A DNA stretch of 30,249 bases, taken from positions 1 through 30,249 of IMG/VR virus record IMGVR_UViG_3300047560_001538. The stretch is one strand, 5' to 3'. The translations under genes and the position numbers were made by a program. This document shows positions 2,079 through 26,321 of this stretch, one piece after another. The notes under the pieces were generated by a model. That model had not been told where the DNA came from and searched no databases. It saw nothing but the letters and a program-made list of their open reading frames with translations. This DNA comes from a virus. Numbering within the stretch: the stretch's first letter is position 1; each line of letters begins with the position of its first letter.

Positions 2079-3482
2079 ATGGCGATTGAAAATACTATCC
2101 TTGCGCATCTCGTCCATGATGAAGAGTATGGTCGCAAGGTCATGCCTTTCATTAAAGAAGAGTATTTCTCGGACTACCAAGACAAAGTAATCTACCAGCT
2201 CATCATCGAGTACGTAAACAAGTACAACTCCTTTCCTTCTAAAGAAGCGTTGGCTATCGACCTCTCTAACAGAGACGGCATCAATGAAGAAGCTTTTAAG
2301 CAAACAAAAGAGATCATCTCTCACCTTAAGATCGATGCCGATACACAAGAGCAGTGGTTGCTTGATCAGACAGAGAAGTGGTGTCAAGACAGAGCAATCT
2401 ACAACGCGATCATGTCTTCAATCCAGATATTGGACGACAAGACAGGAAAGACGACAAAGGGTGCAATACCTCAGATCCTCTCAGACGCCCTTGCAGTGTC
2501 ATTTGATACGCACATCGGGCACGATTTCATTGAAGATGCGGCTTCTCGCTATGAATTTTATCACACAAAAGAGATCCGTATACCGTTCGACCTCGAGTAT
2601 CTTAACAAAATCACGAACGGTGGGTTGCCTAAGAAGACGCTGAACATCTGCCTAGCTGGTACTGGTGTTGGTAAGTCTCTGTTCATGTGTCACTGTGCCG
2701 CTGCAAATCTGACACAGGGTCGCAATGTCCTGTACATCACTATGGAAATGGCCGAAGAGAAGATCGCCGAGCGCATCGATGCCAATCTATTGGACACACC
2801 CATCGATCAACTCGCGTTGCTACCTAAAGACGTGTATGACAAGAAGGTCGCGCGCATTCGTAACAATACGACCGGTAAACTGATCGTCAAAGAGTATCCT
2901 ACCGCTTGCGCTGGTTCAGCCAACTTTCGTCACCTGTTGAATGAGTTGAAGCTCAAGAAGAACTTCGTTCCAGAGATCATCTACATCGACTACCTGAACA
3001 TCTGTATGTCTTCGAGGATCAAACATGGAGCCAACGTCAATTCTTATACCTATATCAAAGCGATCGCAGAAGAACTACGAGGACTTGCGGTGGAGTTCAA
3101 TGTTCCTGTCGTCTCTGCGACTCAAACAACTCGAAGCGGATATTCGAGCAGCGACTTGGGACTGGAAGATACATCAGAATCCTTTGGACTCCCAGCCACA
3201 GCTGATTTTATGTTTGGTATCTCCACATCAGCGGACTTGGAAGACCGCGGTCAAATTATGGTTAAACAGCTCAAGAATCGCTATAATGATCCAGGGGTCA
3301 ATCGTAAGTTTGTTCTTGGTGTGGATCGCAGCAAGATGCGGCTATATGATGTAGAAGAGTCTGCACAAGATCTGTCTGACGATCGTCCTGTGATGGATAA
3401 GGGTAAGTTCATGACTGAAGACATCGAACGCAGCCTAACTAAACCAAAGTATACTAAGGAAATGTTTGCGGGGTTTAAATGA
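2079..3482 (+). CDS. gp41: Replicative DNA helicase, DnaB family (T4 gp41-like)
   Basis: Hexameric 5'-3' helicase that unwinds the replication fork and partners the primase encoded at 17838. The protein has 467 residues, the usual gp41 size. An N-terminal helical domain (about 1-140) is followed by a RecA-like ATPase core with Walker A GTGVGKS at 194-200, Walker B-type IIYIDY at 300-305 and a sensor-type VVSATQTTRSG segment around 344-354. GGAG at 2064-2067 is the likely ribosome site, 11 bases before ATG. A 48-base gap separates it from uvsX. The stop codon overlaps the next gene's start. Confidence 0.94.
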   Translation: MAIENTILAHLVHDEEYGRKVMPFIKEEYFSDYQDKVIYQLIIEYVNKYNSFPSKEALAIDLSNRDGINEEAFKQTKEIISHLKIDADTQEQWLLDQTEKWCQDRAIYNAIMSSIQILDDKTGKTTKGAIPQILSDALAVSFDTHIGHDFIEDAASRYEFYHTKEIRIPFDLEYLNKITNGGLPKKTLNICLAGTGVGKSLFMCHCAAANLTQGRNVLYITMEMAEEKIAERIDANLLDTPIDQLALLPKDVYDKKVARIRNNTTGKLIVKEYPTACAGSANFRHLLNELKLKKNFVPEIIYIDYLNICMSSRIKHGANVNSYTYIKAIAEELRGLAVEFNVPVVSATQTTRSGYSSSDLGLEDTSESFGLPATADFMFGISTSADLEDRGQIMVKQLKNRYNDPGVNRKFVLGVDRSKMRLYDVEESAQDLSDDRPVMDKGKFMTEDIERSLTKPKYTKEMFAGFK

Positions 3483-3787
3483 TGAAAAGACGTGAATTCT
3501 TTAAATTACCAGCTGGTGTTGCGCTCGGAGCATCTATCGGTGTTCCCATTGCAGAAGCAAAGTCGACTGCTATCGAAGTCCCTCAACCACCGCCGAATGA
3601 AGGGGTTCACATCGTTCTTCAAGGATACAAGAAACGAGAGACACCGCTGCAATCAACAGCTAATGGAGCTTTAGGCTACTTTAGCACTTCAGAACCGTCA
3701 GAACATAAAGTTGCTATGGCTGTTGGCGAAGACGGTCGTCTGTGGATTAAGATTGGTGATGAATGGAAGAGGGTAGCAGTAGAATGA
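3479..3787 (+). CDS. Small protein with a twin-arginine (Tat) type signal peptide
   Basis: 102 residues from ATG 3479; ATG 3482 would give one residue fewer. The N-terminus reads KRREFFK, a close match to the Tat motif S/T-RR-x-F-L-K. A weakly hydrophobic, Ala/Gly-rich stretch and a possible signal-peptidase site near IAEA (about residues 24-28) follow. The mature part is short and proline-rich, then beta-like, ending in LWIKIGDEWKRVA. This ending recalls small phage virion domains, but I cannot name a family. It overlaps the helicase stop and is followed by another Tat-like gene starting on its own stop codon. Folded export into the periplasm is inferred from the signal alone. Confidence 0.75.
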   Translation: MMKRREFFKLPAGVALGASIGVPIAEAKSTAIEVPQPPPNEGVHIVLQGYKKRETPLQSTANGALGYFSTSEPSEHKVAMAVGEDGRLWIKIGDEWKRVAVE

Positions 3788-4233
3788 ATAGGCGATCTAT
3801 GTTAGGTATGCTTGGTATCGGCGCTGCTGCTGGACCTGCTATTGCTGAGAATATTGTTTCACAATCTAGTGAAAAATCTGTTCTTGCTCATAATTACAAA
3901 TATGATGTAGATTATGGACTTGTTAACAAGTACGCTCCTGATGTTGTTCAAGAAAATCCACTACAAAGATTAGAACACATTCGCGAACATTATAATTTTC
4001 TGAAAGATAAGGGGAAATGGGTCAATGACGTCGTTTCTCGCGAAGTACAAGAACTACATAGATATGGTAGTTACCAAAATCATATCGATCCAGATATTAT
4101 GGCCTTGAAATCTTTTTCGATGTCTGCAAAAATTCGTTTTCATGTTCAGCGTAGAGCTGAAAGAAGATACGACCAAGAATTTTCTGAAGTATCTGAACAA
4201 TTGAAGTATTGGATGGAGAAAGTAGGACTATGA
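3784..4233 (+). CDS. Second small protein with a Tat-like signal peptide
   Basis: I place the start at ATG 3784, giving 149 residues. An ATG 21 bases upstream would bury the signal peptide. The N-terminus MNRRSMLGMLG has paired arginines before a Gly/Ala-rich hydrophobic run and a plausible cleavage site around AIAE (about residues 20-23). The mature part is charged and helical, with several aromatic residues (HYNFLKDKGKW, QRRAERRYDQEF) and no recognised family. The start overlaps the upstream stop (ATGA), so it is co-translated with the other Tat-like gene. Codons here are more AT-rich than in the flanking helicase gene, which may indicate separate acquisition. Confidence 0.7.
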   Translation: MNRRSMLGMLGIGAAAGPAIAENIVSQSSEKSVLAHNYKYDVDYGLVNKYAPDVVQENPLQRLEHIREHYNFLKDKGKWVNDVVSREVQELHRYGSYQNHIDPDIMALKSFSMSAKIRFHVQRRAERRYDQEFSEVSEQLKYWMEKVGL

Positions 4234-10505: not shown

Positions 10506-10784
10506 ATGATGAGCATTGAATCAATCATTGGAGTAGCAGTAATCGCTGGTGCTGGTTGGGTCGTATGGAAGATGCTGACCAAGGGCGAGACTGTACAGCA
10601 GGCTGCAGCAGAAGCAGCAGCTGAAGTTAAGGCTGAAGTAGCCAAGGTAGCTGACGTCAACGGCGACGGCAAGGTCGACATGGCTGATGCAGTAGAAGCT
10701 GTGAAGAAGACTCGCGGCGCTGCTAAGAAGGCTGCAGGCAAAGTCAAGGCTGCTGCTAAGAAGACTAAGAAGGCTAAGGCGTAA
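10506..10784 (+). CDS. Small membrane-anchored protein with an EF-hand-like loop and histone-H1-like tail
   Basis: 92 residues from ATG 10506 (ATG 10509 also possible), with GGAG at 10497-10500. One N-terminal membrane segment is at about 6-24. An Ala/Glu-rich linker follows, then a 12-residue loop D50-V-N52-G-D54-G-K56-V-D58-M-A-D61, a dockerin/EF-hand-type calcium-binding pattern. The last 30 residues are almost only Lys and Ala, like histone H1 tails, and could bind DNA. Function is unknown. It overlaps the dps-like gene by one base (TAATG) and shares its late unit. Confidence 0.7.
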   Translation: MMSIESIIGVAVIAGAGWVVWKMLTKGETVQQAAAEAAAEVKAEVAKVADVNGDGKVDMADAVEAVKKTRGAAKKAAGKVKAAAKKTKKAKA

Positions 10785-11221
10785 TGGATGAACTAGTCGA
10801 ACAGATGAAGGTAGTGCTGGCGAGTGCTTTCTCGCTTTACCTCAAGGCGCACTACTTTCATTGGAACGTAGAGGGTCCTAACTTCCCGCAGTATCACTCT
10901 TTCATGGGTGACTTCTACGAGGAAGTCTACGGTTCGATCGATACTATAGCAGAAGAGATGAGAGCTCTGGGTGCTTATGCTCCCGGTTCTCTCAAGCGTT
11001 TCTCTGAGTTGTCTAAGATCGAGGACGAGACAGCTATTCCAGATGCCGCGCGCATGATCAAGATCCTGTTCATGGACAACCAGATCGTGCTCGACGAGTT
11101 AGCAAAAGCGCGAGAATTAGCAGAAAGTGCTAATAAGTACGGACTCGTTAACTTCCTGGAAGACAGGTTGGACAAACATTCCAAGCATCAGTGGATGCTA
11201 AGATCAACTATAAAGGCGTAA
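10784..11221 (+). CDS. dps: Dps-like ferritin (DNA protection / iron storage)
   Basis: 145 residues, the size of mini-ferritins. The family signature is clear: KAHYFHWNVEGPNFPQYH (residues 21-38), then a segment with I-D53-TIAE57-EMRALG. H26, H38, D53 and E57 fall at the spacing of the Dps ferroxidase ligands formed between subunits; one usual acidic ligand (position 42) is Gly, with D43 next to it. Dps dodecamers oxidise Fe(II) with hydrogen peroxide, limiting Fenton damage, and some bind DNA. Here it could protect phage or host DNA, store iron, or be packaged. There is no Lys-rich tail of its own, but the gene just upstream ends in one. Confidence 0.88.
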   Translation: MDELVEQMKVVLASAFSLYLKAHYFHWNVEGPNFPQYHSFMGDFYEEVYGSIDTIAEEMRALGAYAPGSLKRFSELSKIEDETAIPDAARMIKILFMDNQIVLDELAKARELAESANKYGLVNFLEDRLDKHSKHQWMLRSTIKA

Positions 11222-16136: not shown

Positions 16137-16835
16137 ATGGCAGACATTATCGTATCAACATCTGGAACATCTGGCGGCATGGGCAAACAGCTTGCTCTTT
16201 CGCCTGAAATTATGAAACTTCGTGTCGATATGACTGACATTGGCAAGGGTAAAAACATTACTGATTGCAAAGTCGTATACGTAGCAAAGGCAGTTGGTTC
16301 TTCATCTTTCCAACGTTGGAAAGCATGGGCTGAAGTAAAGGGTAAGAAAGTTCTTACTGCAGTTAAACCAGATAAGATTCTTGAAACTTTTGCAAAAGAA
16401 GGCGTTGATGCTATTGACGCCGCGCCCGGTTATCTTGTAATGGTTGCAAAGATGTATGAAGCGACCGGCAAATCAGCAAATCTTAAGCAAGTTATCTCCG
16501 GTCATGATAAGATGGAACGCTCTGACATTCCATATATTCAGAAGTGGCTTGGTAAAGACTTTCAGATCGGCTATGGTTGTACTGAAATTGGTACAGTTGC
16601 TTCTGGTTCAGCAGAAGAAGTTGCTGACATCGACGGTTGCGTCGGTAAGCCATTAGAAGGAATCGTTGTAGAGATAGATGCTGGTTATATTCGCATCAAG
16701 TCACCATCTATGGCAGAGAACTACTTAGACTTTGCTGAGATGGATGCAATCCACTTCAGAAACGGATGGTTCTATCCGGGCGATATGGGTTATTTTACAG
16801 CTGACGGAAGGCTGGTAATCACTAAAAATAGATGA
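16137..16835 (+). CDS. Shortened ANL-superfamily (AMP-forming acyl-CoA synthetase-like) domain
   Basis: 232 residues carrying the central motifs of adenylate-forming enzymes in order: A3 STSGTSGG (7-14), an A4-like segment around 91-105, A5 GYGCTE (145-150), A6 GCVGKPLEGIVVEI (167-180), A7 FYPGDMGYF (212-220) and the start of A8, GRLVITKNR (224-232). Full enzymes have about 500 residues: here the roughly 150-residue N-terminal part and the whole C-terminal subdomain with the A10 lysine are missing, and the protein ends at the hinge. AAGGA precedes ATG. It follows the adhesin gene by 9 bases. It may still bind ATP or an acyl/aminoacyl ligand, modify the fibre, or act as a chaperone; all are inference. 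Confidence 0.8.
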   Translation: MADIIVSTSGTSGGMGKQLALSPEIMKLRVDMTDIGKGKNITDCKVVYVAKAVGSSSFQRWKAWAEVKGKKVLTAVKPDKILETFAKEGVDAIDAAPGYLVMVAKMYEATGKSANLKQVISGHDKMERSDIPYIQKWLGKDFQIGYGCTEIGTVASGSAEEVADIDGCVGKPLEGIVVEIDAGYIRIKSPSMAENYLDFAEMDAIHFRNGWFYPGDMGYFTADGRLVITKNR

Positions 16836-19681: not shown

Positions 19682-20333
19682 AGTTATCCTTAAGGGTGTG
19701 ACACGACCCGTTGAAGGAATGCAAATGAACGTCGACGAGTTCGTAGCCTATGTGGCTCGAGTCTCTAATCCATCTAATCAAAACAATACTGAGACTGCAC
19801 CTAAGCTACTTCGCTACCTCGCTAAGCATAAGCACTGGTCACCTTTTGAAATGGTGAACGTAGTCATGGAAATAGAGACGACACGAGACATTGCTCGTCA
19901 GATCCTTCGTCATCGTTCGTTTCATTTTCAAGAGTTCAGCCAGCGATATGCCGATCCTACTCAGGACTTAGGTTTTGTTACTCGCGAAGCTCGTCTTCAA
20001 GATCAAAAGAATAGACAAAATAGTATTGAGACTAATGACGATGACATTCAAGAGTGGTGGAATGTAGCACAGACTATATCTCAACAACAAGCACAATTGC
20101 TTTATAAACAAGCTATAGATCGTGGTATTGCCAAAGAACAAGCTCGTGCAGTTCTTCCTGAGGGTCTGACTTTGTCTCGTATGTACATGAACGGTACCCT
20201 CCGCAGCTGGATCCATTACTGTCAGCTTCGTATGGGTCCAGAGACCCAGAAAGAACACCGTGAGGTGGCATCTTTGGCATGGGAAGTCATAGTTGGACAG
20301 TTTCCTAGCCTCAAAGACGCGCTCGAGTTATAA
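19674..20333 (+). CDS. thyX: Flavin-dependent thymidylate synthase ThyX
   Basis: Methylates dUMP to dTMP using methylene-tetrahydrofolate, NADPH and FAD, supplying thymidine nucleotides for phage DNA. 219 residues, normal for ThyX. The signature RHRSFHFQEFSQRY (residues 79-92) matches the ThyX motif RHR-x7-S. VNVVMEIETTRDIARQILRH precedes it as in the family, and the C-terminal substrate-binding part (LRSWIHYCQLR) is present. It is last in the primase-to-thyX string of overlapping genes. Its stop TAA is part of the late promoter for the curli-like cluster. Confidence 0.95.
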   Translation: MNRVILKGVTRPVEGMQMNVDEFVAYVARVSNPSNQNNTETAPKLLRYLAKHKHWSPFEMVNVVMEIETTRDIARQILRHRSFHFQEFSQRYADPTQDLGFVTREARLQDQKNRQNSIETNDDDIQEWWNVAQTISQQQAQLLYKQAIDRGIAKEQARAVLPEGLTLSRMYMNGTLRSWIHYCQLRMGPETQKEHREVASLAWEVIVGQFPSLKDALEL

Positions 20334-20336
20334 ATA
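20329..20336 (+). promoter_or_regulatory. T4-type late promoter for the curli-like cluster
   Basis: Exact TATAAATA overlapping the thyX stop codon. Predicted start is near 20342, so the leader is only about 14 bases before ATG 20356, with GGAG at 20346-20349. This places csgF-csgG and the genes behind them under late control. Confidence 0.75.
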
Positions 20337-20355: not shown

Positions 20356-20793
20356 ATGAAGAAGTTAGTTATAGCCTTTTTACTAATTTCTTCTGCTTCC
20401 CACGCCTCTGAAATGCAGTTTGGGTTCAAGAGTCCTGCATTCAACGGCGTGGGTTTTTCGTCTCATGTTCTTACTATTGATAATCTGGAACAGACCAGAA
20501 AGCAGAAGATCATAGACGACAAGAAGGCAGAGGCTGCCAAAGCGGCTGCCGACGCTAAGAACACAAACTTAGCAAAATTCCTAAATAACCTAGAGAGTCG
20601 TATCTACGCCACAATCTCGCAGAACATAGCTGCTGAGTTGTTTAAAGACGGTGGTGCGACCTCTGGTGCTTTTGATATTCAGGGTAACCATCTACAGTGG
20701 TCGTCTGACGGATCTAGCATCACACTGACTATAACTGATGCCGGCGGCAGCACTACGCAAGTCGTCGTACCCTACGGAAGTTTAGCATGGTAA
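20356..20793 (+). CDS. csgF: CsgF-like curli assembly factor
   Basis: 145 residues with a Sec signal peptide (MKKLVIAFLLISSASHA, about 1-17). The mature start EMQFGFKSPAFNGVGFSS (about 19-36) fits the CsgF N-terminal segment that plugs into the CsgG pore (E. coli pattern: FxFxNPNFGGNP). The C-terminal beta part (ITLTITDAGGSTTQVVVPYG) also fits. A Lys/Ala-rich helical insertion (about 52-68) separates the parts. In curli systems CsgF sits at the outer face of the CsgG channel and couples export to fibre nucleation. The csgG start overlaps its stop. The DNA around 20399-20458 also has a terminator-like inverted repeat. Confidence 0.85.
   Translation: MKKLVIAFLLISSASHASEMQFGFKSPAFNGVGFSSHVLTIDNLEQTRKQKIIDDKKAEAAKAAADAKNTNLAKFLNNLESRIYATISQNIAAELFKDGGATSGAFDIQGNHLQWSSDGSSITLTITDAGGSTTQVVVPYGSLAW
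20399..20458 (+). terminator. Terminator- or attenuator-like structure inside csgF
   Basis: A perfect 8-bp GC-rich inverted repeat, CCCACGCC (20399-20406) / GGCGTGGG (20446-20453), is followed at once by five T residues (20454-20458). Nested inside is a second perfect repeat, AATGCAG (20412-20418) / CTGCATT (20435-20441). It begins at the end of the signal-peptide coding part. Coupled translation would keep it open; stalled translation could let it form and stop transcription of the cluster. The fold is visible; the regulatory role is inferred. Confidence 0.45.
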
Positions 20794-21590
20794 AAGCCTT
20801 TGTCATAGCTTTAGCTTTGGTTCTAACTGGTTGTGCCGGTAAAGGTATCACTCAAAAGACCATTGAGAAAGAAGTGGATGGTCCTGAGATAGTGACACAC
20901 AAGCGATTCAACGAGCTAGTCAACATAACTGCTCCAGATGGTCCTGTAATACCGATCGCAGTGTATCGCTTCAATGACATGACTGGACAGCGTAAGCCAA
21001 ATAGCAACTACGCTTCTCTAAGTTCAGCAGTCACACAGGGCGGCGAAGTATTTCTGATCAAAGCATTACAAGATGCTGGCAAGGGTAAGTGGTTTCAACC
21101 GGTCGAGAGAGTCGGCCTTGAGAACTTAGTTAAAGAGAGACAGCTTATTCGTTCTCAGCGTGAGACGTATGAGAAAGATCAAGCTAAACCTCTTGTACCT
21201 CTAATCGTTGCGGGAGTGATGATAGATGGTGGAATTGTGGGTTACGATACTAATATCGCTACTGGTGGTTTGGGCGCTAGATTCCTTGGAGTAGGCGCTG
21301 ATCAACAGTACAGAAAAGATGAAGTCACTATCATGTTGCGACTCATCTCAGTAAACACCGGTGAGATCCTTCTCTCTACCGGTTCGACTAAGACAATTTA
21401 CAGTACCGGCGTGAGCGCTAACGTCATGAAGTTCGTGGACGCAGGTACTAAGTCAGTAGAGCTAGAAGCTGGTTCAACTATCAACGAGCCTACGACTTAT
21501 GCAGTGAGAATAGCGATTGAAGCAGCCGTTACAGATATGATTAAAGAGGGAGCAAAAAGAAAGATCTGGGGTTTCAAGAAAGGGAAATAA
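20787..21590 (+). CDS. csgG: CsgG-like outer-membrane curli secretion channel (lipoprotein)
   Basis: 267 residues, near the 277 of E. coli CsgG. A lipoprotein signal with lipobox LTGC (C16) is followed by the CsgG core: AVYRFNDMTGQRKP (58-71), FQPVERVGLENLVKERQLI, IVGYDTNIATGGLGARFLG, GADQQYRKDEVTIMLRL, NTGEILLSTGSTKTI. All align by eye with the E. coli protein, including the membrane-spanning segments. CsgG forms a nonameric 36-strand pore exporting curli subunits. At the constriction loop (KPNSNYASLSSAV, 70-82) the residues equivalent to E. coli N55/F56 appear to be S77/L78. It overlaps csgF and abuts the curlin-like gene. Confidence 0.93.
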   Translation: MVKAFVIALALVLTGCAGKGITQKTIEKEVDGPEIVTHKRFNELVNITAPDGPVIPIAVYRFNDMTGQRKPNSNYASLSSAVTQGGEVFLIKALQDAGKGKWFQPVERVGLENLVKERQLIRSQRETYEKDQAKPLVPLIVAGVMIDGGIVGYDTNIATGGLGARFLGVGADQQYRKDEVTIMLRLISVNTGEILLSTGSTKTIYSTGVSANVMKFVDAGTKSVELEAGSTINEPTTYAVRIAIEAAVTDMIKEGAKRKIWGFKKGK

Positions 21591-22265
21591 ATGAAACTAA
21601 TAACAAGAATGATGGCGTTTTTGTCATTCTTGGTTATGTTTCAATATGCAAATGCGGCGAGCAACAGCATCTATATGGATCAAATAGGTGATGGCTCCAC
21701 GATCTCGATCACGCAGACTGGCAGCGGAAATCAGGTTGGCAATAGTACGAACAGAGCCACTCTGAACGGCAATAATAATAGTGTTACTGTTCAACAGATT
21801 GGTAACTCTAACGTCACGAACATAAACGTAGACGGTGCAGGCGCGACTGTGACTAGTAATGTAACTGGTAGTTCGAACCAATCCACGATCAATTGCGACT
21901 CATGTACTGGTACTACTATCAATAAGACTGTAACGGGTGACGGTAACACCGTATCTATTCAGAACGACGGTGTCGCGACTACTAATGTATCAGTATCGTC
22001 TGATAACAATACCGTGACTATGACTAACAACTCTACGAACGCAGCTGGCGTAGTCAACAACATCGATATATCTGGTGGCAACGGTAACCAAGTGACTGTA
22101 GATCAGACTGGTGCAGCTAGCACTACTGGTCATTCGCTTGATCTTACTATAACTGGTGCGCTTAATACAACTACTATAGGACAGGGTGGCGCAGTTGATT
22201 CAAAGGTTAATGCTACTATCACTGGCTCTAGCAACACTCTTACTATTAAGTCCAACCACAACTAA
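21591..22265 (+). CDS. Curlin-repeat protein (CsgA/CsgB-like), secreted
   Basis: 224 residues with a signal peptide (about 1-22, ending QYANA). The mature part is almost wholly short beta repeats rich in Asn, Thr, Ser, Gly and Val. Several fit the curlin pattern with QxGxxN: MDQIGDGSTISITQTGSGNQ (29-48), VQQIGNSN (67-74), GNGNQVTVDQTG. A CDSC cysteine pair (C102, C105) is unusual for curlin. It begins on the base after the csgG stop and is the obvious export substrate. The last 80 bases overlap the next gene in another frame. A 9-bp inverted repeat lies just inside its 5' end. Confidence 0.75.
   Translation: MKLITRMMAFLSFLVMFQYANAASNSIYMDQIGDGSTISITQTGSGNQVGNSTNRATLNGNNNSVTVQQIGNSNVTNINVDGAGATVTSNVTGSSNQSTINCDSCTGTTINKTVTGDGNTVSIQNDGVATTNVSVSSDNNTVTMTNNSTNAAGVVNNIDISGGNGNQVTVDQTGAASTTGHSLDLTITGALNTTTIGQGGAVDSKVNATITGSSNTLTIKSNHN
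21604..21632 (+). promoter_or_regulatory. Hairpin at the 5' end of the curlin-like gene
   Basis: CAAGAATGA (21604-21612) pairs perfectly with TCATTCTTG (21624-21632) around an 11-base loop. It starts 13 bases after the ATG, inside the signal-peptide codons, where an mRNA hairpin could slow early translation or protect the message. Confidence 0.3.
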
Positions 22266-23304
22266 AGCGGACATCGGTAGAGTAACAGAGCAGACTGGTC
22301 CGACTGAAATTAAGAGGAACAACTCAAGCGTTCCATCTCAAGTTCAGTCTGAGATAGAGATGAACGACGTGGTATCTACTGCGAATTCAAAGGCAGGTAT
22401 CACGTTCAAAGATGATACTAAAGTACAGATCACGGAACACTCTCGTCTCGTGATCGATAACTTTGTCTATGATGGTGAGAAGAAGACCGGTAAGCTGGGC
22501 ATCAAGATGGCGCTCGGTACTATTAAGTACGCTTCTGGTCAGATAGCTAAGAACGATCCACAGCAAGTCGTAGTAGAGACTCCAACTGCTACCATCGGTG
22601 TACGTGGTACCGACTTCTCTGGAACCGTCGACGAGACTGGTAAGTCGACTATTATCTTATTACCTTCATGTCCTGCAGGATGGAAGAACTTACAGAGAGA
22701 TTGCACAGTAGGTAACATCACTGTAACTACGATGATGGGTACAGTGTTACTTACTAAAGCGTTTGAATCTGTAACAGTCAGCACTGGCATACAGCAGCCG
22801 AAGTCTGCTCTTCTAAATCTTTCTCTAGATCAGATCAATAACATGTTGATCGTTACACCGCCAAGAGAAGTAAGACAAGAACAGAGCAGGGGTATAACGA
22901 AAGCATTTAACTTCCTAGATCAAGACTTCTTGTCTGTAGACTACTTAAAGTTTACTGCGCTGGAACAGAACGCTCTGGATAGACCAACTGGATTAGATAA
23001 GAACTATCTGGCTTATGAAGACTATCTTCTCAACTATCTGGACGTGACTGCTGCACAGATGTTGAGTAACGAGCTCGATCAGTTCAATGCTCTTCTACCT
23101 AAATACGACAAGACTACAGGCCTTAAGTACTTCGTCGATAATGACTACGTTACCCTGTACAGAGAGACTGCTAGCCACTACGCTGAAGTCACTCTGAGTA
23201 CTACAAGGATGGCGACTCTGAATTTAAGTCAGGACGGTATTACTGTGAAGCAAGTGGTTAATGGTCCCGGCACTACAACTATAACTATAAAGCAGAGCCA
23301 ATGA
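22186..23304 (+). CDS. Secreted FecR-domain protein
   Basis: 372 residues from GTG 22186, chosen because it gives the signal peptide a charged start (Arg 7) before the hydrophobic run; ATG 22210 would give an uncharged start but is possible. After the signal (cleavage near TKA, residue 28) comes a FecR domain (about 29-160), including AGITFKDDTKVQITEHSRLV and the hallmark TPTATIGVRGTDF (132-144). Cysteines C162 and C173 follow. The C-terminal 170 residues are helical then beta, with no known domain. FecR domains of this type act in the periplasm or at the cell surface. It lies between two curlin-like genes and overlaps both. Confidence 0.82.
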   Translation: MAQLIQRLMLLSLALATLLLLSPTTTKADIGRVTEQTGPTEIKRNNSSVPSQVQSEIEMNDVVSTANSKAGITFKDDTKVQITEHSRLVIDNFVYDGEKKTGKLGIKMALGTIKYASGQIAKNDPQQVVVETPTATIGVRGTDFSGTVDETGKSTIILLPSCPAGWKNLQRDCTVGNITVTTMMGTVLLTKAFESVTVSTGIQQPKSALLNLSLDQINNMLIVTPPREVRQEQSRGITKAFNFLDQDFLSVDYLKFTALEQNALDRPTGLDKNYLAYEDYLLNYLDVTAAQMLSNELDQFNALLPKYDKTTGLKYFVDNDYVTLYRETASHYAEVTLSTTRMATLNLSQDGITVKQVVNGPGTTTITIKQSQ

Positions 23305-23564
23305 AGATACTTATAGCGCTACTCTTAATCTCTACATCTGTCCATGCACAGACCGTAAACAATGCTACAGTGAACATGCAAGGAACGAATCAAAATGTTA
23401 TTATTACTCAAAGCGGTGGAAGCCATTCTGCTAGTGTGGACCTGCGTGGAAATGGTATTACTTTTCTTGGATCCCAAAGCGGAACATCTAATCAAAGTTA
23501 CAGCATTGCTATTGATTGCGGCAGTAACTGTCCCACCAGCCCGTATACAATTACACAGTACTAA
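23301..23564 (+). CDS. Second, short curlin-like secreted protein
   Basis: 87 residues with a clear signal peptide (MKILIALLLISTSVHA, 1-16). The mature protein has NVNMQGTNQNVIITQSGG-like short beta repeats resembling curlin units (QGTNQN, QSGGSHSA, SQSGTSNQS) and a Cys pair, DCGSNC (C73, C77), similar to CDSC in the larger curlin-like protein. Its small size suggests a minor subunit or nucleator (CsgB-like), but this is inference. The start overlaps the FecR gene stop (ATGA), and two bases separate it from the cyclase gene. Confidence 0.65.
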   Translation: MKILIALLLISTSVHAQTVNNATVNMQGTNQNVIITQSGGSHSASVDLRGNGITFLGSQSGTSNQSYSIAIDCGSNCPTSPYTITQY

Positions 23565-23566
23565 CG

Positions 23567-25630
23567 ATGGAAAAGTTAGGCATCATTCTTACCAGCAAAT
23601 GGGCAGCTGTTCTTTCAGCGATGATCTTTATCGCTGTGGCAGTATGGAATCCAACCGCCGTTGAAACTTTACAACTGAAGACCTTTGACTACTTCATTAC
23701 GTCACTAGACAGTAAAGAGTCCGAGGAGATAGTACTTGTTGAGTTCGGTGAAAAGTCTGTACAGAGTTTTGGCCAGTGGCCGTTCGATCGTCGAGACATC
23801 GCGAAGACTATTGACAAGCTTCGTGAGAACGGCGCAGCCATTATTGCAGTTCCTATCCTGTTTTCTGAAAAAGATCGTGCAGGCGGCGACTCCGCTCTTG
23901 AAAAGAGTATCGCTGGCGGTGGCATCGTTATATCACAGACACCAACTTCTCAAACCAGAAACCCAGATGCTGCTCGCCGAGGGTTTGCTGCTATCGGTAA
24001 TGATCCTGCTCCATATCTCTTTACTTGGCGCGGGGCTATCCCTCCTCTTCCAAATCTTGCAGGAAATGCAGACGGCGTTGGACTCTTGGCTGTTGCTCCC
24101 GAGCGCGACGGTGTTGTTCGTCGCGTGCCTATGTTGGCTCGCATTGGGGATACACTGTATCCTTCACTTGTACTGGAAACCCTACGCACAGCTGCTGGAG
24201 ACCCCTCCTATCAAATCAAAACTGGTGACGCCGGTGTCGAGGCCGTCCGTATCCCGGCCTTCCCAGCCATCTCTACAGATCAGAACGGTCGCGTCTGGAC
24301 AACCTGGAACAATAAGTTCAGACAAGTTGAAGCAACTGAAATCCGTAAGACAGATGTCGAAGGGAAAATTGTTGTCTTAGGGTTAACAATCGAGGGAGTC
24401 GGTGGTATAATAGCTACTCCAGTCGGCGAGAAGTGGGCTCACGAAGTTCAAGCTCAGACCCTTCAGACTCTGATCGATGGGACTTCTGTTTCGAGAGCTT
24501 CATATGCGAGTTTAGTAGAAATAGGAATAACAACAATACTGCTATTGATGTTAGTTGTCCTAGTGCCACGAGTGTCTGTACGATTGACTGTCCCATTTTA
24601 TGTTCTCTTTATTGGACTTGTTATCGGTGGTTCTTACTACTTATTCCATACTCATCTTCAGTTGTGGAATCCAAGCTATATAGTCTTGTCTGGAACTATG
24701 GTGTTCTTCCATCTGGTATATAATAACTTTGCCAGAGAGAACAGACTGAAGTTACAAATCAAGAAGCAGTTTGGAACTTATCTGTCACCTAAGATGGTAG
24801 AGAAGTTGCAAGAGAATCCTGACCTACTTAAGCTTGGAGGAGAGACTCGTGAGCTTTCGATTATGTTTACTGACGTCCGTGGCTTTACATCTATTTCTGA
24901 GCATTATGGCGCTGACGTTCAAGGCTTAACACAGATCATGAACCGTTACATGACTGCCATGACTGCAAAGATCCTACAGAACGAGGGTACGTTAGATAAG
25001 TACATCGGCGACGCGCAGATGGCATTCTGGAATGCACCGCTTGACGATGCTGATCATGCAAAGAACGCAGTAAAGACTGCACTGGAGATGTTAGGTGACT
25101 TGGAACGATTTAATAGAGAAATTGCGGTGGAAGGTGTACCTGCTTTTGGAATGGGCCTTGGAATCAATACTGGTTCTGTCGTTGTGGGTAATATGGGAAG
25201 CTCCCAGCGTTTCGACTATACCTGCCTCGGTGATTCTGTTAATCTCGCTTCACGTCTTGAAGGACAGTCGAAGCCTTATCATGTCAAACTCGTCATTGGA
25301 CAACGTACTTACGAGTTGGTAAAAGACGAGTACCTATGTCTTGAACTTGACTGTATCGCTGTTAAGGGAAAGAAGGAGGGTGTGAACATCTACACGATCG
25401 TAGATAACAATAGTTTGAACGTAGCTTATTCTCGTACTCATGCTGACTTCATTCAACTATATCGCTCCCAGCAGTGGAATAGAATGAAAGAATACTATAT
25501 GACTCTAAGAGATGCTTTTAGCGGAGATATGAGAGAGTACTACGATATGATGATGGAGAGAGTGGAGGAGTTCATTAAGAATCCTCCAGGTAATGATTGG
25601 GACGGAATCTACCGTGCGACTAGCAAATAA
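23567..25630 (+). CDS. CHASE2-domain membrane adenylate cyclase (class III)
   Basis: 687 residues. An N-terminal membrane segment (about 10-28) leads to a CHASE2 extracytoplasmic sensor (about 35-310). Three membrane spans follow at about 313-335, 340-360 and 368-386. The class III cyclase domain (about 428-615) has the metal-binding aspartates D436 (FTDVRGF) and D482 (YIGDAQMAFW), K478 and D550 at the base-recognition positions, and transition-state N559/R563 (GDSVNLASRLE). K and D there favour ATP, so cAMP is the likely product. All catalytic residues appear intact. No ribosome site is obvious; it is probably coupled to the curlin-like gene 2 bases upstream. It converges with the minus-strand genes. 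Confidence 0.93.
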   Translation: MEKLGIILTSKWAAVLSAMIFIAVAVWNPTAVETLQLKTFDYFITSLDSKESEEIVLVEFGEKSVQSFGQWPFDRRDIAKTIDKLRENGAAIIAVPILFSEKDRAGGDSALEKSIAGGGIVISQTPTSQTRNPDAARRGFAAIGNDPAPYLFTWRGAIPPLPNLAGNADGVGLLAVAPERDGVVRRVPMLARIGDTLYPSLVLETLRTAAGDPSYQIKTGDAGVEAVRIPAFPAISTDQNGRVWTTWNNKFRQVEATEIRKTDVEGKIVVLGLTIEGVGGIIATPVGEKWAHEVQAQTLQTLIDGTSVSRASYASLVEIGITTILLLMLVVLVPRVSVRLTVPFYVLFIGLVIGGSYYLFHTHLQLWNPSYIVLSGTMVFFHLVYNNFARENRLKLQIKKQFGTYLSPKMVEKLQENPDLLKLGGETRELSIMFTDVRGFTSISEHYGADVQGLTQIMNRYMTAMTAKILQNEGTLDKYIGDAQMAFWNAPLDDADHAKNAVKTALEMLGDLERFNREIAVEGVPAFGMGLGINTGSVVVGNMGSSQRFDYTCLGDSVNLASRLEGQSKPYHVKLVIGQRTYELVKDEYLCLELDCIAVKGKKEGVNIYTIVDNNSLNVAYSRTHADFIQLYRSQQWNRMKEYYMTLRDAFSGDMREYYDMMMERVEEFIKNPPGNDWDGIYRATSK

Positions 25631-25631
25631 G

Positions 25632-25985
25632 TTACTTCTTCTTTACTTCTTTGCTTGGTTCGTCTGGTTTATTTTCGGGCTCTTTATGTGGTATCTCTTT
25701 GGGCATACTCTCATCTTTACGGAACTTACTCGCTTTTGCTAGTAGTTCGTCGTGCTCCATTTCACGAAGCATAAGTACTATGTTAACCTTTTGATTCAAT
25801 CTAATCAGGTCGTTGTCTAACATACGGATACGGTCGATGAGAGCTATAAGAACAGTGTTGGCATCAGACAAAACGGGCTTGATCTCTTTGGTCGCCCATT
25901 CCCATACATAGTAAACGAAGTAACCGAGTCCTACAGCAGCAACGATTGGAAAACCGTACTTTGAAATTAGCTGTGCAATATCCAT
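25632..25985 (-). CDS. Small single-span membrane protein, paralogue of its neighbour
   Basis: 117 residues on the minus strand. N-terminal MDIAQLISKYGFPIVAAVGL and a membrane span (about 12-31) precede a coiled-coil-like segment (about 40-75) and a charged, Lys/Glu/Pro-rich tail. The pattern GFPIxAAxxxGYF plus LIDRIRMLDNDLIRL is shared with the 25988-26275 gene. AGGAG stands before its ATG on the minus strand. Topology fits a holin-like or virion membrane protein. It shares the late promoter with its paralogue, ends 1 base from the cyclase gene stop, and no terminator is visible between them. Confidence 0.7.
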   Translation of the reverse strand: MDIAQLISKYGFPIVAAVGLGYFVYYVWEWATKEIKPVLSDANTVLIALIDRIRMLDNDLIRLNQKVNIVLMLREMEHDELLAKASKFRKDESMPKEIPHKEPENKPDEPSKEVKKK

Positions 25986-25987
25986 TT

Positions 25988-26275
25988 TTAATCTCTCCTA
26001 GCGTCGTTCTTGCCGTCGGCTCGAGCGATACGATCGATGTCAGGCTTAACACCCAGAGCATTAGATACAAGGGTGTCGATTCGTATGACGTCGTGGTTCA
26101 TGGTCTTGACCCTGTTGTCAAGAGCGGTGATGATTCCACTGAGACCCTTTACCGAGCTCATGACACCAGCGAGAATAAACTTCATGGTGAGAAAGATAAA
26201 ATATCCGCCAGCTATCGCAGCCGCGATTGGAAAACCGACGTCGGCTATTAGTTTAAAGATTGAATTAACATCCAT
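25988..26275 (-). CDS. Small single-span membrane protein (first of a paralogous pair)
   Basis: 95 residues on the minus strand. The N-terminus MDVNSIFKLIADVGFPIAAA runs into a membrane span (about 14-38), followed by a helix with ITALDNRVKTMNHDVIRIDT and a basic/acidic tail. Similar proteins are known to me as conserved hypotheticals of marine T4-like phages. The minus-strand late promoter (26321-26314) lies 38 bases upstream of its ATG. It is followed 2 bases later by the related 117-residue gene. Candidates: holin-type lysis protein or minor virion protein; undecided. Confidence 0.72.
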   Translation of the reverse strand: MDVNSIFKLIADVGFPIAAAIAGGYFIFLTMKFILAGVMSSVKGLSGIITALDNRVKTMNHDVIRIDTLVSNALGVKPDIDRIARADGKNDARRD

Positions 26276-26288
26276 AGAAGCACCCGTG

Positions 26289-26317
26289 TTGACATTTTGT
26301 GATATTCATGGTATATT
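26289..26317 (+). promoter_or_regulatory. Sigma70-like (early) promoter for nrdA
   Basis: TTGACA (26289-26294), a 17-base spacer and TATATT (26312-26317); the predicted start is near 26324, followed by AAGGAG at 26329-26334 and ATG 26341. It has the same -35, spacer length and -10 as the uvsX promoter. Its -10 overlaps the minus-strand late box at 26314-26321. Confidence 0.75.
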
Positions 26318-26321
26318 TATA
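26314..26321 (-). promoter_or_regulatory. Minus-strand T4-type late promoter box
   Basis: TATTTATA on the plus strand reads TATAAATA on the minus strand. It is 38 bases before the minus-strand ATG ending at 26275, the same spacing as the plus-strand late boxes. It should drive the two small membrane proteins. Confidence 0.7.

What the first reader, a model, noticed from the sequence alone, without database searches (positions are those of the whole stretch)
23567..25630. Phage-borne membrane adenylate cyclase with all catalytic residues
Both metal aspartates (D436, D482), the adenine-specifying K478/D550 pair and N559/R563 are present, joined to a CHASE2 sensor. A virus that installs a signal-responsive cAMP source in the host inner membrane is unusual; it could reprogramme host regulation or feed information about curli export back to the cell.
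Basis: partly seen in the sequence, partly recalled or inferred. Interest (0 to 1): 0.75.

Follow-up and report, generated by a model that had tools for sequence, protein, structure and literature searches.

The report
Phage cAMP-making enzyme in curli operon
This T4-like virus carries, beside its curli (amyloid-secretion) genes, an intact-looking membrane enzyme predicted to make the signal molecule cAMP; the gene is real, but the same gene set was already published in marine phages, so it is another member of a known module and not a surprise.

Summary
Window 23567-25630 (+) encodes a 687-aa CHASE2 plus class III cyclase protein (Pfam E 5e-40 and 2e-21), AlphaFold2 pLDDT 88, with a cyclase domain matching CyaB and CyaC. 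D436, D482, K478, N559 and R563 are correctly identified. D550 is not the adenine partner: spacing to N559 and R563 puts that residue at T552. The gene ends a csgF-csgG-curlin-FecR-curlin-cyclase operon behind an exact T4-type late promoter motif. It is not new: the same module occurs in Pelagibacter phage HTVC008M and Methylophilales phage Melnitz and was described in 2022 (PMC9599517). Additions here: (i) metal and Lys residues are invariant in 242 viral relatives, but the Melnitz-like clade has N559S with T552D, one origin, still under purifying selection; (ii) FecR genes cluster with CHASE2 genes in alphaproteobacteria (22 of 35 within 10 kb, 0.5 expected), so FecR and cyclase were probably acquired as a pair; (iii) no cNMP-binding domain in 19 related phage records, so any cAMP effector should be the host's; (iv) two small membrane proteins (phrog_18771) accompany the module. 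Activity, signal and purpose are untested.

The parts
23567..25630 (+). CHASE2-class III adenylate cyclase (687 aa): TM helix 11-27, periplasmic CHASE2 about 30-312, TM helices 314-335, 338-363, 370-402, cytoplasmic cyclase 425-612, conserved C-terminal tail 613-687
22210..23304 (+). secreted FecR-domain protein (signal peptide; the ORF listing opens at GTG 22186, ATG at 22210 is the likelier start)
   Evidence: Pfam FecR E 5.7e-12; present in 130 of 133 viral loci; start choice is inference from the signal-peptide-like N-terminus
20787..21590 (+). CsgG, curli outer-membrane secretion pore (lipoprotein signal, Cys16)
   Evidence: Pfam CsgG E 3e-53
20356..20793 (+). CsgF, curli pore partner
   Evidence: Pfam CsgF E 7.4e-17
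21591..22265 (+). curlin-repeat protein (CsgA/B-like)
   Evidence: Pfam Curlin_rpt E 0.0012, just below the curated cut-off; same position as annotated curlin genes in Melnitz and HTVC008M
23301..23564 (+). short curlin-like secreted protein (87 aa) between FecR and cyclase
   Evidence: no Pfam match; assigned by position and sequence; Melnitz has an annotated curlin-repeat protein in the same place
20329..20336 (+). T4-type late promoter motif TATAAATA, ending about 20 nt before the csgF start; it overlaps the thyX stop codon
   Evidence: 7 exact copies in the window against 0.68 expected; exact copy upstream of csgF in 39 of 113 viral loci against 1.4% background
25632..25985 (-). small membrane protein, phrog_18771 family, companion of the module
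25988..26275 (-). second small membrane protein, phrog_18771 family; a late-promoter motif lies at 26314-26321 on the - strand

Best explanation
A T4-like phage carries a late-expressed envelope operon: CsgF/CsgG outer-membrane pore, curlin subunits, a secreted FecR-domain protein and a CHASE2 adenylate cyclase. The cyclase sits in the inner membrane as a dimer, with CHASE2 in the periplasm and the Lys/Thr-type class III domain in the cytoplasm. An envelope event (FecR protein state, curlin export or envelope stress) is read by CHASE2 and changes cAMP output, which a host CRP-like protein then reads to adjust surface or biofilm physiology while curli is made. Shown: gene content and order, domains, topology in the model, residue conservation, purifying selection, late-promoter motif, viral separation from the cellular sample, FecR-CHASE2 pairing in alphaproteobacteria, no phage cAMP-binding domain found. 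Inferred: enzyme activity, dimer, signal identity, host receptor and benefit.
For: Domains and residues; AF2 model and match to CyaB 3r5g, TMt 0.88, rmsd 1.9, 36% identity; operon with overlapping or abutting genes; FecR in 130, CsgG in 122 and CsgF in 118 of 133 viral loci with enough upstream DNA; late-promoter motif; cyclase dN/dS 0.04 in the unsaturated pair and about 0.18 for CHASE2; viral cyclases split from 28 cellular ones with 100% SH-aLRT; FecR within 10 kb of 22 of 35 CHASE2 genes in 12 alphaproteobacterial genomes, 0.49 expected; no cNMP-binding domain in 19 related phage records, with control genomes positive. Precedent: S. meliloti CHASE2 cyclases act with the outer-membrane barrel NsrA and the CRP-like regulator Clr (PMC13001267), and a FecR gene lies beside cyaD1 and clr (PMC5498481).
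Against: No activity data. In S. meliloti the FecR protein beside CyaD1 was a Clr target and was not needed for signal perception (PMC5498481), so FecR may be an output and not an input. Host unknown, so no receptor could be tested. The exact late-promoter motif is missing in most Melnitz-clade loci (7 of 46 have it). Melnitz infections showed no clumping (PMC9004378).
Confidence: 0.6

Rival explanations
1. The cyclase is a passenger of a curli/FecR module whose real role is envelope permeabilisation or lysis timing: CsgG as a pore with the small phrog_18771 membrane proteins acting like holins, and cAMP output incidental or only fine-tuning.
For: The Melnitz authors propose CsgGF as a gated secretin or pinholin in lysis (PMC9004378); phrog_18771 proteins are found near the module in 43 of 43, 46 of 49 and 17 of 19 loci, and in isolated phages only in the six records that also carry this CsgG and cyclase; one matches a holin PHROG weakly, E 2.6e-4 over 18 residues; late-promoter motifs precede both gene sets.
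Against: Curlin-repeat genes are present, so the system is more than a pore; strong constraint on the cyclase domain is not what a passenger would show; the holin match is short and weak.
Confidence: 0.2
2. cAMP from the phage cyclase is a host-takeover or anti-competitor signal acting through host CRP, unrelated to curli; the linkage is only co-transcription.
For: No phage cAMP receptor found, so the target must be a host protein; phages carry other auxiliary metabolic genes.
Against: Linkage to FecR and curli genes is kept across three diverged viral clades; the late-promoter motif argues against takeover; FecR-CHASE2 pairing is common in bacteria.
Confidence: 0.12
3. In part of the family the protein is a degenerate cyclase kept as a receptor or scaffold.
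For: 79 viral sequences, all of the Melnitz-like type, have N559S, with one change on the tree.
Against: The window's clade keeps all residues; the Melnitz clade still shows dN/dS 0.02-0.06 in the cyclase domain; Ma1120 is an active natural cyclase with Lys/Asp and Ala in place of Asn (PMC4215837), a pattern close to the Melnitz Lys/Asp/Ser.
Confidence: 0.08

Closest known systems
T8SS/curli module with FecR and adenylate cyclase in pelagiphages (PMC9599517; HTVC008M KC465899; first curli report PMC7029224)
   Same: csgF, csgG, curlin, FecR, second curlin, cyclase in the same order; cyclase 41% identical to HTVC008M
   Different: this window is in a separate clade with Thr552 instead of Ser552 and a 75-residue conserved C-terminal tail that HTVC008M lacks; small membrane proteins lie 3' of the cyclase on the other strand instead of 5' of csgF
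Methylophilales phage Melnitz curli region (MZ577098, PMC9004378)
   Same: same gene order; cyclase 43% identical over 99%
   Different: the Melnitz clade has S550, D552 and S559 where this one has D, T and N; the Melnitz paper does not discuss the cyclase ('adenylate' and 'FecR' do not occur in its text)
CyaD1/CyaD2/CyaK CHASE2 adenylate cyclases of Sinorhizobium meliloti with NsrA and Clr (PMC13001267, PMC5498481)
   Same: CHASE2-cyclase architecture; FecR gene beside cyaD1; an outer-membrane barrel partner is known
   Different: bacterial, with their own CRP-like regulator Clr next door, and no curli genes are described with them; sequences were not compared directly here
Class III cyclases CyaB (3r5g) and CyaC (1wc1)
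   Same: fold, metal aspartates, Lys, Thr aligned at the second substrate position, Asn and Arg
   Different: different sensor domains; only about 32-36% identical
BiofilmReg operon of Burkholderia (LysM-FecR protein plus CHASE2 histidine kinase; PMC5192318)
   Same: periplasmic FecR-domain protein beside a CHASE2 sensor, in a biofilm operon
   Different: output is a histidine kinase, not a cyclase

Membership tests
Class III nucleotide cyclase | Guanylate_cyc domain and fold | tested here: met
   PF00211 E 2.2e-21; CyaB TMt 0.88
Class III nucleotide cyclase | two metal aspartates | tested here: met
   D436 in 242 of 242 and D482 in 241 of 242 viral sequences (one gap); both in 80 of 80 cellular
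Class III nucleotide cyclase | transition-state Asn and Arg | tested here: met
   N559 and R563 in the window; Asn replaced in the Melnitz clade only
Adenylate (not guanylate) cyclase | Lys at first substrate position | tested here: met
   K478 in every sequence without a gap; Lys marks ACs and Glu marks GCs (PMC4215837)
Adenylate cyclase, Lys/Thr (class IIIb-type) | Thr (or Ser) as second substrate residue | tested here: met
   T552, found by spacing to N559/R563; the label 'class IIIb' is from general knowledge
Adenylate cyclase | makes cAMP from ATP | not testable with these tools
   needs an assay
CHASE2 receptor | CHASE2 domain between an N-terminal TM helix and three TM helices | tested here: met
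   PF05226 E 5.3e-40; helices 11-27, 314-335, 338-363, 370-402 in the model
Phage T8SS-FecR-AC module (PMC9599517) | CsgF, CsgG, curlin, FecR and cyclase in order | tested here: met
Phage T8SS-FecR-AC module (PMC9599517) | histidine kinase 5' of csgF (described for the podoviruses) | tested here: not met
   the gene 5' of csgF is thyX; phrog_18771 membrane proteins lie 3' of the cyclase instead. The paper lists the kinase for podoviruses, so it is not a core feature of the myovirus modules

The most novel reading that the evidence does not exclude
A phage-encoded trans-envelope signalling chain: the secreted FecR-domain protein and the CsgG pore report envelope or export state to a CHASE2 cyclase, and the resulting cAMP acts on the host's CRP-type regulator late in infection, so that a virus wires its own surface-fibre machinery into host second-messenger control.
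Probability: 0.2. Interest if true: 0.7.

Novelty: new member of a known kind. Interest (0 to 1): 0.3.

Why it matters
If active, this is a virus-made second-messenger source tied to a surface-amyloid system and carried by many environmental phages. The clade-wide N559S/T552D change in Melnitz-like phages, beside intact relatives, is a ready natural test of whether cAMP output matters. The FecR-CHASE2 pairing suggests that FecR here belongs to an envelope sensor pair and not to iron regulation as published.

Tried and rejected
A class-wide survey of cAMP receptors in alphaproteobacteria could not be run because the tool needs a genome handle as centre. Host prediction from NrdB gave only distant jumbo phages of enterobacteria and Xanthomonas at about 59% identity, so the host stays unknown. 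D550 as adenine partner was considered and rejected (spacing). CRP binding sites were not searched because the host is unknown. Sigma-70 and terminator scans were at chance level. Set aside: FecR as iron regulator, since cellular neighbours include large proteins with RTX, cadherin or VWA domains and the phage FecR protein weakly matches surface-adhesin models.

Full report
What is there. The ORF at 23567-25630 (+) is real and intact: 687 aa with no internal stop. Pfam finds CHASE2 at residues 21-330 (E 5.3e-40) and a class III cyclase domain at 428-611 (E 2.2e-21). The surrounding genes are those of a T4-like phage: UvsX, DnaB-like helicase, primase, ThyX, NrdA, NrdB and a virion protein.

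Residues. Alignment with solved cyclases and with 242 viral and 80 cellular, mostly alphaproteobacterial, relatives confirms D436, D482, K478, N559 and R563. In Ma1120 the second substrate residue, the Asn-equivalent and the Arg are 157, 164 and 168 (PMC4215837), a spacing of 7 and 11; here that gives T552. The protein is therefore a Lys/Thr enzyme; Lys at the first position marks adenylate cyclases. In the sample, position 552 is Thr in 77, Ser in 81 and Asp in 79 viral sequences, and Ser or Thr in all 80 cellular ones.

A clade-wide catalytic change. All 79 viral sequences with S559 are of the Melnitz-like type and also carry S550 and D552. On a tree built without columns 545-565 the Asn-to-Ser change occurs once. 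The cyclase domain in that clade is still under strong purifying selection, dN/dS 0.02-0.06, and Ma1120 shows that a cyclase with Lys/Asp and no Asn can be active. Loss of activity there is possible but not implied. For the window's own clade most cyclase dS values were saturated; the single usable pair gave 0.04.

Structure. AlphaFold2 with 40 aligned sequences gave mean pLDDT 88.4 and pTM 0.64, with helices 11-27, 314-335, 338-363 and 370-402 and a class III fold. Foldseek matches CyaB (3r5g; TMt 0.88, rmsd 1.9) and CyaC (1wc1) for the cyclase domain. Inner-membrane topology with periplasmic CHASE2 is inferred from this and from CHASE2 proteins in general.

Operon and timing. csgF, csgG, curlin, FecR, a short curlin-like gene and the cyclase follow each other with overlaps or gaps of a few bases. 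An exact T4-type late promoter motif, TATAAATA, ends about 20 nt before csgF; the window has 7 such motifs against 0.68 expected. The motif is present upstream of csgF in 39 of 113 viral loci against a 1.4% background, but unevenly: 17 of 26 HTVC008M-type, 15 of 41 window-type, 7 of 46 Melnitz-type. Late expression is thus likely for this window and unproven for the family.

Distribution. Among 50,697 phage records only nine match, and only six (HTVC008M twice, Melnitz four times) carry the full protein. Of 133 viral loci with enough upstream DNA, 130 have FecR, 122 CsgG and 118 CsgF. The viral cyclases separate from 28 cellular ones with 100% SH-aLRT; the cellular set was chosen as best hits, so this supports but does not prove one origin. 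An alphaproteobacterial origin agrees with PMC9599517.

FecR. In 12 alphaproteobacterial genomes, 22 of 35 CHASE2 genes have a FecR domain within 10 kb against 0.49 expected; the genomes are not independent samples and were chosen because they carry such cyclases. Cellular neighbours include proteins with RTX, cadherin and VWA domains. S. meliloti has the FecR gene smc02177 beside cyaD1 and clr (PMC5498481), and Burkholderia pairs a FecR-LysM protein with a CHASE2 kinase in a biofilm operon (PMC5192318). No CsgG or CsgF homologue was found near the cellular cyclases. The simplest reading is that FecR and cyclase were taken up as a pair and joined to curli. Against FecR as sensor: the S. meliloti FecR gene was not needed for signal perception.

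Who reads cAMP. No cNMP-binding domain was found in 19 related phage records, while control genomes were positive; several records are fragments, and the window itself is one. The cyclase is single-copy in all 19. The receptor would have to be a host protein, and the host is unknown.

Small membrane companions. Two phrog_18771 proteins lie just 3' of the cyclase on the minus strand. Relatives sit near the module in 43 of 43, 46 of 49 and 17 of 19 loci with both flanks, usually 5' of csgF in the HTVC008M type, and in isolated phages they occur only in the six records that carry this module.

Known or new. The module with FecR and cyclase was described in PMC9599517; curli genes in pelagimyophages in PMC7029224; Melnitz in PMC9004378, which proposes a lysis role. 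This window is a new member. New here, as far as the searches show: the T552 correction, the N559S clade, the late-promoter motif, the FecR-CHASE2 statistics and the constant phrog_18771 companions.

Noticed in passing
window 16137-16832 (+): A 232-aa ORF resembles part of an acyl-CoA synthetase (AMP-binding, Pfam E 2.9e-8; best NCBIfam MenE E 3.7e-14), much shorter than a full enzyme, beside tail-fibre genes; only weak partial matches in isolated phages.
   Followed up: partly
window 10784-11221 (+): Dps-like DNA-protection or ferritin-like protein; matches PHROG 3636 and, below their cut-offs, Dps models.
   Followed up: partly
window 3479-3787 and 3763-4233 (+): Two adjacent small proteins begin with Tat-like signal sequences (MKRREFFKL, MNRRSMLGM), read by eye only.
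   Followed up: no
window 4670, 4828, 7912, 9259, 13254, 20329 (+) and 26314 (-): Seven exact T4-type late promoter motifs against 0.68 expected, most just upstream of virion or module genes.
   Followed up: partly
window 25632-26275 (-): Tandem paralogues of phrog_18771, membrane proteins of unknown function that travel with the curli module.
   Followed up: partly
Melnitz-type loci (L001, L164 and others), cyclase position 559 in window numbering: Clade-wide replacement of the transition-state Asn by Ser together with a Lys/Asp pair, single origin, still under purifying selection.
   Followed up: partly
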